From the NCBI GenBank assembly GCA_021819125.1, contig JAKARW010000009.1, forward strand, positions 1 through 44,263: a DNA stretch of 44,263 bases, read 5' to 3'. The position numbers and the translations under genes were made by a program. Every line of letters begins with the position of its first letter. The stretch's first letter is position 1. The stretch is from Pseudomonadota bacterium. Lineage in GTDB: Bacteria; Pseudomonadota; Gammaproteobacteria; Acidiferrobacterales; Acidiferrobacteraceae. The notes under the pieces were generated by a model. It did no database searches. It was not told the origin of the DNA and worked only from the letters and a program-made list of their open reading frames with translations. Shown piece after piece: positions 15,806 to 19,822 of this stretch.

Positions 15806-16504
15806 CATCCCCTCCCGCCGTAAGATCGATCATCGAGGCATGCGTCTGCGTCCCGATTCGCTATACGCACGAGTTCGGCCGCCCCCATACTCCCGTTGCG
15901 ATCGCATGGACTTGAAACCGTTCCCTTGGAAACCATATTCCCGGCATCGAGTTTACATTTGCAGGAAGTGTCGCAGGCGCCTCATTTTGAGGCCGTGCAA
16001 CAGTGTAGGCAAGGCCAGGGGACCAAGGAGAATCGGCGCCAAAATCCGGCACCCCGCTTAGGGGTCCCCCCGGCCTTCGGCCCAGAACAAGCACGCCGGC
16101 CTCTGGTGCGCGCATATGAGACATCCAATGCGGGCCGTATGACCCCCCGTTCTCACAGTGAAGCGACGAGATGCGTGCTCCCGCCCTGCGGGCGAGCCGT
16201 GCGCTCATGACCGGCTGTGAACCACTCCCTCTGATAGCGCGTCGCCGGTTTCCGGCACGAGGCCCGTCCATACTGACTGGACGGGCCGCGCGACCGGTAA
16301 TACGACGTGCCGACATAGCCGGCCGTATGGCTTTAAGTCCTTGCCGATGACCTGTCCCCACAGTGGGCGATCATAACACGACCACCGGCGCGGACATTCC
16401 CCTGGGCGCAAAACGAGACCCGCCGCAAACTCCGCGCCGTTGCTTCGCTTCCCAGTGTATGGCGCGCAGCGAAGGGGCGTATGCTCCATACCATCCCAAG
16501 GGCC
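15806..16504. other. Gene-free stretch holding repeat copy A
   Basis: About 700 bp without a gene I can support. Open frames here (for example minus-strand 15861-16361) are low-complexity Arg/Gly/Pro translations with no family features. The first 250 bp show nothing clear. The rest, from about 16056, is copy A of a diverged direct repeat whose second copy lies near 18.2-18.6 kb. Confidence 0.7.
16056..16480 (+). repeat. Diverged direct repeat, copy A
   Basis: Aligns by eye to 18177-18590 in the same orientation. Best-matching core: 16195-16319 against 18320-18448, both starting GCCGTGCGCTCAT and ending CGACATAGC, with about two-thirds identity and small gaps. Weaker matches extend on both sides, such as GGCC-CGGT-GCGCG near 16098 and 18199, and CTTCGCTTCC/CCTCGCTTCC downstream. 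The core holds a perfect 10-bp hairpin (16261-16270 with 16278-16287). Short minus-strand translations of both copies resemble each other (PETG, GVVH) but in broken frames, so I treat it as a non-coding or decayed repeat. No transposase is visible. End points are approximate. Confidence 0.65.
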
Positions 16505-17104
16505 TTATTGGCCCTCTTTCCCGGCGGTCAACAACGCCTGCGTGAACGCCCGATCCTCGAACAGGGTTTTGATGCCGGCGTGTAGCGCCCGATCCATGGC
16601 AATCCCGGCATTAGATCCTGACGCGATCATGGCGCTTGTTTTCCCGGTGCTCATGATGTCCTTGGAAAAGATCTCCCTCCCGCCTTTGTTCGTGACGGCA
16701 ACGACCATGTTCAACTTTGCCACTGCCTCGCCCTCAAACATCCCGACATGGAAAGTACTGTGGAACTCCTTGACGACTGCGTTCACGATGACAGGAGCGT
16801 CGCTCGCCGTACGAAATCCGCGAGCGACAAGCTCCCTTTGTAGGGCGATTTTTATCGTCTTGGAGATCGGCTCCTTAGCGTAAATGGACGCCATTGACAT
16901 GCCAAATCCATTCTTTTTGCTTCCAATCCTCTTATGCTTCTTTTTGTTTTTCACCTCGACATGCACCACCACGTTTCTCGCACCCGGCACGAGCGCCATA
17001 TTTTTCATCGGCTGATAGGTAATCGGCGTGGTAGCGGTCATCATAGCGCATCCGGAAAGGACCGGGACGATGATCAGCATGGCTATAAGTGATTTACGTA
17101 GCAT
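16505..17104 (-). CDS. YajG-like lipoprotein
   Basis: A 199-residue lipoprotein. Seen: a signal peptide with lipobox LSGC and the lipidated cysteine at residue 19, MLRKSLIAMLIIVPVLSGC; a basic stretch VEVKNKKKHKRIGSKKNGFG (about 50-70); and a C-terminal half with alternating strands and helices (IVNAVVKEFHSTFHVGMFEG, AVAKLNMVVAV). Length and layout fit the YajG family of uncharacterised lipoproteins. The start has GAGGAGG upstream and a good promoter. The gene is visibly richer in A and T than its surroundings, and it sits between the two repeat copies, divergent from a broken outer-membrane protein gene; acquisition by transfer is possible. Confidence 0.8.
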   Translation of the reverse strand: MLRKSLIAMLIIVPVLSGCAMMTATTPITYQPMKNMALVPGARNVVVHVEVKNKKKHKRIGSKKNGFGMSMASIYAKEPISKTIKIALQRELVARGFRTASDAPVIVNAVVKEFHSTFHVGMFEGEAVAKLNMVVAVTNKGGREIFSKDIMSTGKTSAMIASGSNAGIAMDRALHAGIKTLFEDRAFTQALLTAGKEGQ

Positions 17105-17140
17105 ATGTTATCGCCTCCTCTTTTAGTCTTCTGTAAAATG

Positions 17141-17169
17141 TGTATAGCTATTTAGTGCCATTCTCGCAA
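17141..17169 (-). promoter_or_regulatory. Sigma-70-type promoter of the YajG-like gene
   Basis: On the minus strand: TTGCGA (17169-17164), exactly 17 bases, TATACA (17146-17141). Both boxes match the consensus at four of six positions. It lies 37 bases upstream of the ATG at 17104, in an AT-rich divergent spacer. Confidence 0.5.
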
Positions 17170-17286
17170 CCATCGTGCGCTCACTACCCTGATGAATACT
17201 TTGTTCCTGTTAGCCATTCTTACGCAAATACAGACTTCTGAACATGTGCACGTGCCGGACTGTTGCGGCATAAGGCAGACCGTGTT

Positions 17287-17300
17287 TTGACAATAGTCAA
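17287..17300. promoter_or_regulatory. Palindrome TTGAC-N4-GTCAA upstream of the beta-barrel gene
   Basis: A perfect 5-bp dyad with a 4-base centre, about 90 bases before the GTG of the broken outer-membrane protein gene, in the 283-bp divergent spacer. It could be an operator; the left arm plus the next base also reads TTGACA. No -10 sits at the right distance. Function is inference. Confidence 0.25.
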
Positions 17301-17387
17301 TATTTGATCCCCAGTGTATTTACCGTGTCTTAGATTCAACGGTTTTACACAAACTTCAAAAATCATCACCAGCGGGAGGGAAGTGGC

Positions 17388-17936
17388 GTGCATAAAACCC
17401 ATGGAACGATTCTGGCCGGCGTCGTCTTGGCCGCATCTCTTGCCATCGCGCTGCCCGCGACGGCTGCCGCACCGCGCTGGTATGGTGGAGCAACCCTCGA
17501 TCAAAACTCGGCATCCGACTTTGGGGGAACGACCGGATTTAGCATTTTTTGGGGGATATCGCCCGCCTATTCACCTTCCGGCCGGAAGACTTGCTGTGGA
17601 GGCCGGTTACGACCACTTCGGATCGTTTAGCGTAAACGGCCTGCCCGCCGGCTTTACAGAGTCGGTATCCGCTTACGACATCGAAGGATCGGCGTCTACT
17701 CATACCCGTTCATGAAGACGTTTGCGGTTTACGGACGCGCCGGATTGGCGGCGGAAAATGCATCGGCTACCGGCACATACCCGGGATATACATACTCGGC
17801 GGCTGGGTCGACCATAAATCTTCTGCTAGGCGTCGGCGTTTCCTGGCGGGTTGTGCGGCATATTGCGGTTCGTGCGGAATATCGTGGCGAGGGGGATATT
17901 CGGTCGTTCGAGATCGGTGCGACGTACGGGTTTTGA
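17388..17936 (+). pseudogene. Outer-membrane beta-barrel protein, broken by two frameshifts
   Basis: Joined, three frames give one continuous OmpA-like small beta-barrel of about 180 residues. Frame 1 (17388 on, GTG, with GGGAGGG upstream) gives a signal peptide ending ATAAAP and WYGGATLDQNSASDFGG. An extra base in the run ATTTTTTGGGGG (about 17543-17553) moves reading to frame 2, with RLAVEAGYDHFGSFSVNGLP. A missing base near 17690-17696 restores frame 1: VYSYPFMKTFAVYGRAGLA, then VGVSWRVVRHIAVRAEYRG and the typical last strand ending in Phe. As written, frame 1 stops at 17630. The indels have opposite sign. Either a real pseudogene or two homopolymer-type sequencing errors. Confidence 0.8.
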
Positions 17937-18982
17937 GTTACATCAGGTGGGAAAGCCCACCGAAAAATAATGATCGGGGCGCGGCGCGGGCTTCCGATAT
18001 CCCTATGACGCACCGGCAAAACACAGTCCCGATACTTAAAATCGCGATATTGCATGGTCTCCGGCATCGAACGCCGAGGGCACCCGCGCGCTCGCAAGGA
18101 GGCTGCTTATCGAGTCATACACACCCCGTTTAGTGTACAGTTGGCCGGGGAGGGCAAACTAAAGGGCCATCAGAGATCTTGGGGTCCGATTGTGCGCGGG
18201 CCCCGGTATGCGCGACGAGAAGTCCAAATCGCCCCCGCGCCTTCGGCATGGCCGATCTTAAAAGTACGCTCTTTGTGCCTGTGCTCTCACTTCGGCACGG
18301 TCACGGCCGTCCTCAGGCGGGCCGTGCGCTCATAGCCGGCGTGTGGACAACTCCCTTGGGTGGGGTATAGCCGGTCTCCGGCGCAAGACGCTCGCCCCCC
18401 ATGACCGGGATGGGCCGTGCGGCCCACCATGCGGCGTATCGACATAGCAGGCGGCGTGGCGGGTGTCCTGGCAGGTGGCCTCCCATCGCCCGGACCTTAT
18501 GCCCATTGCCGGCCGAACGGCTGGTCCCGCGGGCTCCTGACCCTCGCTTCCTTATGGCTCGGTCGGACGAAGGATACCCGGACGCCACGCCGATCGCCTC
18601 GGAACCTCTGGCGGAGGGGATGTATTGGCAAGCCGTGCCCGAGCATCATATCCTCACAGTCGACGGCGATAAACCCGCCCCACTCGCATCCCTATAGGCC
18701 TATGGACGCTGCCCTTTCTGCCAATCTCCAAGACATCCGCGACACGGCGCGGGTGCTTTTGCGTCTTGCGCCACCCGGCGAGCGCCGCCGCACGCGCCAC
18801 AAGGACATGGGTCTGCTCCTTGGAGACCCTCGCCATCTTTGGTCTAGGGAACCACAAAGGGCCGGGGGTAGCCTCCCGGCTCAAGACATGGCCCTACGCA
18901 CGGGCCTATTTTGGCCGCAGCGTCCCTTGTTTTGGGATTTTGCTTTTGTCGACAAACGCCACATCGCAGCCGGGATACACCC
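17937..18982. other. Gene-free stretch of about 1 kb holding repeat copy B
   Basis: No gene I can support. It opens with a hairpin GGTGGG-AAAG-CCCACC (17946-17961) just after the beta-barrel stop; no U-run follows, so termination is doubtful. Copy B of the repeat occupies about 18177-18590. From 18590 to nadC I see nothing clear: an ATG frame at 18702 (MDAALSANLQDIRDTARVLL) starts well but turns into low-complexity sequence and has no ribosome site. Confidence 0.6.
18177..18590 (+). repeat. Diverged direct repeat, copy B
   Basis: Partner of the repeat at 16056-16480, same orientation, about 2.1 kb away. The core 18320-18448 matches 16195-16319. At the position of copy A's perfect hairpin this copy has CCCAT (18398-18402) and ATGGG (18410-18414), also with a 7-base loop but a different stem sequence. 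Ends are approximate because identity fades gradually. Confidence 0.65.
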
Positions 18983-19822
18983 ATGCCTTCCACCGTACCT
19001 CACGCATTGATCGCCGCCCAAGTCCAGGCCGCCCTGGAAGAAGACGTGGGGACGGGGGACCTGACCGCGTTGCTGGTGCCCGAACGCCCGGCGCACGCCG
19101 TACTATCCACGCGCGAAGATGGGGTACTGTGCGGGCGCGCCTGGTTCGATGAGGTCTTTACACAACTCGACCCGAACGCGCACATCACCTGGCGGGCGCA
19201 GGATGGCGACCGGATCGCGGCCGGCATGGTGCTATGCGAACTTGAGGGCCCGGCGCGGGCCTTACTGACCGGGGAGCGTACCGCGATCAATTTCCTGCAA
19301 ACCCTGTCGGGGACCGCGACCCTCGCGCGACGTTACGCCGACGCGGTGGCGCACACCAAGGCACAGGTCCTCGATACCCGCAAGACCCTGCCGGGACTGC
19401 GGCTCGCTCAGAAATACGCGGTCCGTTGCGGGGGCTGCACGAACCATCGTATCGGCCTCTACGACGGGGTCCTTATCAAGGAAAACCATATCGCTGCCGC
19501 CGGCTCCATTGCCAATGCCATCGCCCGCGCAAGCGAGGTCGCCGCCGGCCGCATGGTGGAGATCGAGGTCGAGACTTTAGCCGAACTCGAGGAGGCGCTG
19601 GCCGCTGGCGCCTCCCGCGTCCTGCTTGACAACTTTGCGCCCGAGGATCTCGGCGCGGCCGTGCGATACAACGCGGGGCGCGCCTTGCTCGAGGCCTCGG
19701 GCGGCATTACGTTAGCCAACGTCGGGCGCTATGCCGAGACCGGGGTCGACTTCCTATCGGTCGGCGAACTCACCAAGTCATTGCATGCGCTCGACTTGTC
19801 GCTGCGCTTCTCCCTGATCTAA
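18983..19822 (+). CDS. nadC: Quinolinate phosphoribosyltransferase (nicotinate-nucleotide pyrophosphorylase)
   Basis: Makes nicotinate mononucleotide from quinolinate and PRPP in de novo NAD synthesis. 279 residues. Seen: [11 protein letters not shown] near residues 15-25, the core [36 protein letters not shown] with the substrate-binding basic residues, [13 protein letters not shown], and the C-terminal [19 protein letters not shown]. The frame is open upstream, but ATG 18983 ([10 protein letters not shown]) fits the family; upstream residues look non-coding. The other NAD gene here, nadE, is at 22.7-24.3 kb on the other strand and is not in the same operon. Confidence 0.95.

What the first reader, a model, noticed from the sequence alone, without database searches (positions are those of the whole stretch)
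16056..18590. Two diverged direct copies of a ~420-bp non-coding repeat around an envelope-gene pair
Seen: 16056-16480 and 18177-18590 align in the same orientation, with a core (16195-16319 and 18320-18448) about two-thirds identical. They enclose a YajG-like lipoprotein gene and a broken outer-membrane barrel gene, and this is the only large gene-poor part of the window. Inference: the copies may be a dispersed family in this genome (a decayed mobile element, or a structured RNA or DNA element), and could allow loss or gain of the enclosed pair by recombination.
Basis: partly seen in the sequence, partly recalled or inferred. Interest (0 to 1): 0.62.

Follow-up and report, generated by a model that had tools for sequence, protein, structure and literature searches.

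The report
Dead copies of an unnamed jumping element
The two repeats are worn-out copies of a small gene-less jumping DNA element that folds on itself, has spread through acid-mine bacteria, nearly always lands just before a site with a G four bases in, without duplicating its target, and moves by unknown machinery.

Summary
The repeat is real. The two copies (W1 16088-16471, W2 18187-18565) are 71% identical over a 151-nt core, far above shuffles. They are degraded members of a dispersed, ORF-less family, 256-344 nt in the more intact copies, found in 25 of 60 related genomes and unknown to Rfam. Relatives show it is mobile: joined flanks restore interrupted genes, and three sites have empty counterparts elsewhere with nothing duplicated or lost. 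There is no target-site duplication. The left flank is random, but the right flank has G at +4 in 67 of 70 distinct sites; W1 and W2 also obey. More intact copies fold strongly and their hairpins covary. No copy carries its own transposase; ORFs found inside copies belong to IS110/IS1111 insertions. I read it as non-autonomous, moved in trans, probably as a folded single strand by IS200/IS605-like or ISC-like machinery; that step is inferred. W2 ends exactly at a relic of egtC: relatives keep an egtD-egtC-egtB cluster after marC that this genome lost. The enclosed lipoprotein gene occurs in none of 40 relatives.

The parts
16088..16471 (+). W1: decayed copy of the element; strand as in the consensus, 5' CAAGC..., 3' ...GGCGCGCAGCG
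   Evidence: Termini match the family ends; core 71% identical to W2; covariance model hit 16144-16287
16472..16476 (+). Right flank AAGGG of W1, with the G at +4
   Evidence: rule from 67 of 70 distinct sites
18187..18565 (+). W2: decayed copy of the element, 5' CGATTGTGCGC..., 3' ...GGCTCGGTCG (alternate 3' end subfamily)
   Evidence: covariance model hit 18270-18414
18566..18570 (+). Right flank GACGA of W2, with the G at +4; first bases of the egtC relic
   Evidence: alignment to nine relatives
18566..18697 (+). 3' end of a lost egtC gene, intact in relatives
   Evidence: Nucleotide matches to eight relatives begin exactly at 18566; a ninth runs 38 nt further left although its egtC is intact and has no element. 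Gene name assigned from knowledge of the egt cluster, not by a family search
18703..18916 (+). 5' end of a lost egtB-like gene, decayed
   Evidence: Similar to relatives up to between 18805 and 18916; translation
16505..17104 (-). YajG-like lipoprotein gene enclosed by the copies
   Evidence: PF03923, E 3.2e-18; absent from 40 relatives
17388..17936 (+). Broken outer-membrane barrel gene enclosed by the copies
   Evidence: Two ORFs; OMP_b-brl E 2.3e-5 in the second part, below Pfam's cut-off
16314..16334 (+). Weak match (4 substitutions) to a 20-nt palindrome found in many mobile elements of these genomes; inside W1
   Evidence: shuffled windows give 0-2 such matches, so not significant on its own
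18504..18524 (+). Match (2 substitutions) to the same palindrome; inside W2

Best explanation
W1 and W2 are relics of two independent insertions of an ORF-less mobile element, 256-344 nt in the more intact copies, here unnamed. SHOWN: it is dispersed in the genus and order; it inserts precisely with no duplication or loss of target bases; it sits directly 5' of a degenerate motif R-A-K-G-W in which only the G at +4 is nearly invariant, while the other flank is random; its hairpins are kept by compensatory change; it encodes no transposase, and the only ORFs found inside copies are IS110/IS1111 insertions. INFERRED: it is non-autonomous and is moved in trans, most likely as a folded single strand recognised through its hairpins by an IS200/IS605-like (HUH) or ISC-like system already in these genomes, the one-sided motif being the cleavage or target-adjacent signal. 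In this genome the copies have lost their fold and are probably dead. W2 landed in egtC, and a later deletion or rearrangement, starting at its left end, removed the rest of the egt cluster on that side.
For: Family in 25/60 relatives, many copies each. Seven places in one genome (G034) with identical ends, six of them read whole and 288 nt long, so recent movement. Empty sites: G026:C16 221 nt for a 221-nt stretch of joined query, G003:C19 185/185, G005:C129 220/220, G000:C98 221/222. Joined flanks give continuous EAL, MetB/MetZ-like and IS5-type transposase frames. No TSD at any offset tested. +4 G in 67/70 distinct right flanks, binomial P 2e-31 at p=0.3. Hairpin arms 7.05/8 complementary against 5.16 +/- 0.26 when re-dealt, 0 of 2000. 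Fold z on the minus strand -2.2 to -8.4 in 14 copies from relatives, but -1.7 and -0.8 in W1 and W2. TnpB-bearing and element-bearing genomes overlap: 19 both, 5 and 6 one only, 30 neither. W2/egtC junction.
Against: No autonomous copy or partner was found; half copies hold no transposase except IS110-type insertions. G021 and G026 carry many copies but no detectable Y1 transposase, and G034's only one has two stops. The ends do not resemble TnpB or Y1 loci. A motif with one nearly fixed base is looser than the fixed tetranucleotide typical of IS200/IS605. The TnpB overlap is confounded by phylogeny. The W2 deletion route is inferred: its left flank is not egtC.
Confidence: 0.6

Rival explanations
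1. IS200/IS605-type single-strand MITE (PATE- or REPIN-like): a TnpA/RAYT-type Y1 transposase excises and inserts the folded strand; the RNA-like covariation only reflects DNA hairpins. This is one specific form of the best explanation.
For: No TSD, hairpins near both ends. On the consensus computed without G-U pairs, G.T and A.C mismatches are about equal (70 against 93), as DNA hairpins would give. Y1 transposases in 41/60 genomes; IS200/IS605 is the most numerous IS family in Acidiferrobacter thiooxydans ZJ, 27 of 46 copies (PMC8889020).
Against: Y1 not detected in G021, G026, G014, G010 and G039, which carry the element. The fixed flank base is 3 nt away from the junction and the motif is degenerate. 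A genus HEARO control also shows little G-U excess under the same settings, so the mismatch argument is weak.
Confidence: 0.33
2. Guide-RNA-type element: the element encodes an omegaRNA-like RNA whose guide is the random flank, and RAKGW is the target-adjacent motif read by a protein acting in trans.
For: Random left flank plus a fixed motif on the right flank is the layout of IscB/HEARO elements, which in the same genus are followed by ATGA wherever the right end could be read. The minus strand folds 29 kcal/mol better as an alignment and carries 263 against 93 G-U-type cells in the structure fitted to it. Most single copies favour the minus strand beyond composition.
Against: Not HEARO in Rfam, and no convincing similarity to the genus HEARO RNAs. 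IscB in only 5/60 genomes. The favoured RNA strand would put the guide 3', as in TnpB, yet TnpB elements here have other ends. No transcript data.
Confidence: 0.17
3. Miniature derivative of an IS110/IS1111 element carrying its bridge/seekRNA region.
For: IS110/IS1111 elements abut or interrupt several copies, and this family makes no TSD.
Against: The IS sits inside otherwise ordinary copies at three or more different points, so the element is its target, as REP is for IS621 and ISPa11 (PMC11187229). IS110 targets are fixed on both flanks; here the left flank is random.
Confidence: 0.05
4. Ordinary DDE-transposase MITE with inverted ends.
For: Small, non-coding, dispersed; ends share a weak GCGTGCGCC / GCTGCGCGCC resemblance (read by eye).
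Against: No TSD at any offset tested and exact empty sites.
Confidence: 0.02
5. Retrotransposed structured RNA (target-primed reverse transcription).
For: Structured minus strand; many copies keep only one end.
Against: Truncations occur at both ends and as internal deletions, not as one-sided 5' truncation; no reverse transcriptase seen beside a copy, though none was sought systematically.
Confidence: 0.05
6. Two copies of a resident regulatory or housekeeping RNA, not a mobile element.
For: Covarying structure.
Against: Empty and filled alleles in relatives and insertions inside genes; W1 and W2 have lost the fold.
Confidence: 0.02

Closest known systems
HEARO RNA / IscB (ISC) elements, Rfam RF02033
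   Same: No TSD, one random flank and one fixed motif on the right flank, structured RNA at the element start; present in the same genus
   Different: Different RNA, no IscB, motif offset by one base and looser (N-A-K-G-W rather than ATGA), 256-344 nt in total and ORF-less; best-folding strand is the opposite one
IS200/IS605 miniature elements (PATEs) and TnpB elements
   Same: Hairpins, no TSD, non-autonomous; TnpB-bearing and element-bearing genomes overlap
   Different: No sequence relation found at the ends; target is not a fixed tetranucleotide touching the element
REP/REPIN with RAYT (TnpA-REP)
   Same: Palindromic, non-coding, dispersed, attacked by IS110/IS1111 elements
   Different: About ten times longer than a 20-40 bp REP; GTAG/CGTC tag not sought; RAYT link not tested
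ERIC-type and other DDE MITEs
   Same: Small, non-coding, dispersed
   Different: No target duplication
IS110/IS1111 bridge/seekRNA elements
   Same: No TSD; structured non-coding part
   Different: Those elements are found inserted INTO this one; the transposase is not part of it

Membership tests
HEARO / IscB element | Matches the RF02033 covariance model | tested here: not met
   No match at E <= 5 in the window stretch and at E <= 1 in 12 copies, while genus HEAROs score up to 149 bits
HEARO / IscB element | Linked iscB gene | tested here: not met
   Copies are ORF-less; IscB in 5/60 genomes and the family in 25/60
HEARO / IscB element | ATGA directly at the 3' junction, no TSD | tested here: not met
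   No TSD met; the motif is relaxed and shifted by one base
IS200/IS605 non-autonomous element | Ends shared with a resident TnpA or TnpB element | tested here: inconclusive
   Only a few weak, marginal matches among 60 Y1/TnpB loci; not every resident IS could be read
IS200/IS605 non-autonomous element | Insertion next to a fixed tetra- or pentanucleotide, no TSD | tested here: not met
   No TSD, but only +4 is nearly fixed
IS200/IS605 non-autonomous element | Y1 transposase present in host genome | tested here: inconclusive
   41/60 genomes have one; several element-rich genomes show none, but most are drafts
REP/REPIN | 20-40 bp palindrome with a conserved GTAG or CGTC tag | tested here: not met
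   256-344 nt with several hairpins; the tag itself was not searched for
DDE MITE | Terminal inverted repeats and target duplication | tested here: not met
   No duplication
IS110/IS1111 derivative | DEDD transposase or seekRNA between the same ends; fixed target on both flanks | tested here: not met
   Random left flank; the IS is an insertion within copies
Group II intron | Matches the catalytic-intron model RF00029 | tested here: not met
   No match in 12 copies
Any Rfam RNA family | Score above gathering threshold | tested here: not met

The most novel reading that the evidence does not exclude
A family of free-standing guide-RNA-like mobile elements: an RNA of about 280 nt, with no protein gene of its own, that picks up a guide from the DNA beside it and is moved or maintained by a nuclease/transposase acting in trans, reading an R-A-K-G-W motif.
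Probability: 0.13. Interest if true: 0.82.

Novelty: new variant of a known kind. Interest (0 to 1): 0.5.

Why it matters
It is an apparently uncatalogued mobile element, abundant in acid-mine bacteria, with a measurable and unusually clean insertion rule (one G four bases beyond one end, the other flank free, no target duplication) and no identified mover. A rule that looks like a target-adjacent motif without a known nuclease gives a direct handle for finding the machinery. In this genome the element marks the point where a cluster resembling that for ergothioneine synthesis was lost. The family is also a repeated landing site for IS110/IS1111 elements, which use RNA to choose targets.

Tried and rejected
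Rfam on the window, on copies and on neighbours: no match for the element. Hypothesis that it is a HEARO/omegaRNA of the genus IscB: rejected by sequence and Rfam. Hypothesis that it is a TnpB or Y1 element end: only weak marginal matches. Search for an autonomous version by fetching half copies in several genomes: only IS110-type insertions and truncated copies. DNA-versus-RNA test by G-U against A-C counts: first read as DNA, then shown by a HEARO control to be too weak to decide. Consensus structure from the aligned core (A2) missed one hairpin, so the arms of the main hairpin were tested directly instead. Idea that G012 shares the W2 insertion: rejected, its egtC is intact. Plasmid and phage collections: no match. 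Literature: an Acidiferrobacter mobile-element paper mentions no MITE; two other literature searches gave nothing to the point.

Full report
OBSERVATION. The two stretches align as claimed: score 74 against 21.3 +/- 2.4 for shuffled sequence, and 21 for the reverse complement. blastn gives 71% identity over about 151 nt. Termini of better-preserved relatives fix the copies at 16088-16471 (W1) and 18187-18565 (W2). A covariance model built without the window sequences finds W1, W2 and a third copy on contig 5. The own genome also has fragments on contigs 29 and 81.

FAMILY. Searching 60 related genomes found the element in 25, in three families of one order, with up to 14 listed matches each, plus one weak hit outside the order, counted among the 25. 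The per-genome scoring limit makes these lower bounds; a four-genome search scored more candidates and found more. A 25-nt exact pattern over 84,980 species matched one record named Acidiferrobacter sp. and otherwise unnamed Proteobacteria assemblies, plus one assembly labelled Acidobacteria. That these assemblies come from acid mine drainage is my reading of their names, not a tool result. No plasmid or phage record matched. Rfam has no match. Seven places in G034 are identical over both ends and sit at different sites, six of them read whole, so the family has moved recently there.

MOBILITY. Joining the flanks restores open frames that read through, including an EAL domain, a MetB/MetZ-like enzyme and an IS5-type transposase (gene identities are my reading of the translations). 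Empty sites exist in other genomes for three insertions (the EAL site, the MetB/MetZ-like site and an IS-type orfA site), with exact or near-exact lengths: 221/221, 185/185, 220/220 and 221/222 nt. No tested offset shows a target duplication. The left flank is random. The right flank is R (52/70), A (31/70), K (49/70), G (67/70), W (54/70), over 70 distinct flanks and both 3' end subfamilies. W2 (GACGA) and W1 (AAGGG; entered one base off, corrected) obey the rule.

STRUCTURE. The consensus has a 5' terminal stem enclosing smaller hairpins, a multibranched middle and a 3' hairpin. In the main hairpin, 22 distinct arm pairs are complementary at 7.05 of 8 positions against 5.16 +/- 0.26 when arms are re-dealt among sequences; relatedness is not controlled in this test. 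Fourteen copies from relatives have minus-strand fold z of -2.2 to -8.4, but W1 and W2 only -1.7 and -0.8: the window copies have lost the fold and are probably dead. RNA or DNA is undecided. The minus strand folds better as an alignment and in most single copies, but on a consensus computed without G-U pairs the mismatch types are nearly balanced, and a HEARO control shows that this second test has little power.

MECHANISM. No copy has a transposase of its own. Half copies and interrupted copies contain only IS110/IS1111 elements, inserted at three or more different positions inside the element. These IS are known to target structured repeats such as REP and attC (PMC11187229). Precise, duplication-free insertion argues against ordinary DDE transposition. 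What remains most likely is a single-strand (HUH) or RNA-guided type of machinery in trans. Genomes with TnpB and genomes with the element overlap strongly (19 both, 30 neither, of 60), but this follows phylogeny too. IscB occurs in five genomes; nine of the loci carry HEARO RNA, and those whose right end could be read are followed by ATGA on the same side of the insertion. The element's N-A-K-G-W motif is a relaxed, one-base-shifted analogue, but its RNA is unrelated in sequence.

THE LOCUS. In the genus, marC is followed by genes I read as egtD, egtC and egtB (names from knowledge of the ergothioneine cluster). Here only the egtC 3' end (18566-18697) and the egtB start (18703-18916) remain. 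W2's last base abuts the egtC relic, with the insertion rule satisfied. W2's left flank is not egtC, so a deletion or rearrangement followed the insertion; this is inferred. The enclosed lipoprotein gene has no homologue in 40 relatives at E 1e-5, and the barrel gene beside it is broken. The two copies look like separate insertions, not a duplication of one, so the recombination idea has no positive evidence.

VERDICT. Mobile, ORF-less, structured and dispersed are well supported; the mover is unknown. The overall confidence of 0.6 blends a near-certain description (about 0.9) with an uncertain mechanism (about 0.4-0.5). I rate it a new variant of a known kind (non-autonomous structured mobile element), interest 0.5, with a less likely and more novel reading as a free-standing guide-RNA-like element.

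Noticed in passing
L131, L136, L137, L253, L044, L053, L193 and others; window 18504-18524: A 20-nt palindrome CATTGNNGGCCGNATGGCCNN, with outer arms that change together (CC/GG, TG/CA, CA/TG, TA/TA), sits in three unrelated kinds of element: IscB loci, the 3' end of TnpB elements, and the family described here. 77 matches in 1.2 Mb of fetched loci; 57 against 0 in shuffled versions of a subset (fetched loci overlap and are enriched for elements). It looks like a tiny nested mobile palindrome.
   Followed up: partly
L006 (own genome C5), L048, L057, L117, L183, L191, L358: IS110/IS1111-type elements, or what look like their ends, abut or interrupt the element at three or more distinct positions in several genomes, as if it were their preferred target.
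   Followed up: partly
window 15809-18983: Loss of an egtD-egtC-egtB cluster in this genome, with relics of egtC and egtB left between W2 and nadC.
   Followed up: partly
L293, L297: Exact 25-nt element pattern in a metagenome-assembled genome labelled Acidobacteria (JAJYFA01): misbinning or transfer between phyla.
   Followed up: no
L120, L046, L047, L173: A further small insert (CCCCCACAAA..GGGGGTT..CCACGG) in some copies, suggesting modular hairpin inserts.
   Followed up: no
L049, L051, L052, L053, L122 against L040, L055: The loop of one hairpin appears in inverted orientation between copies while the stem is kept.
   Followed up: no
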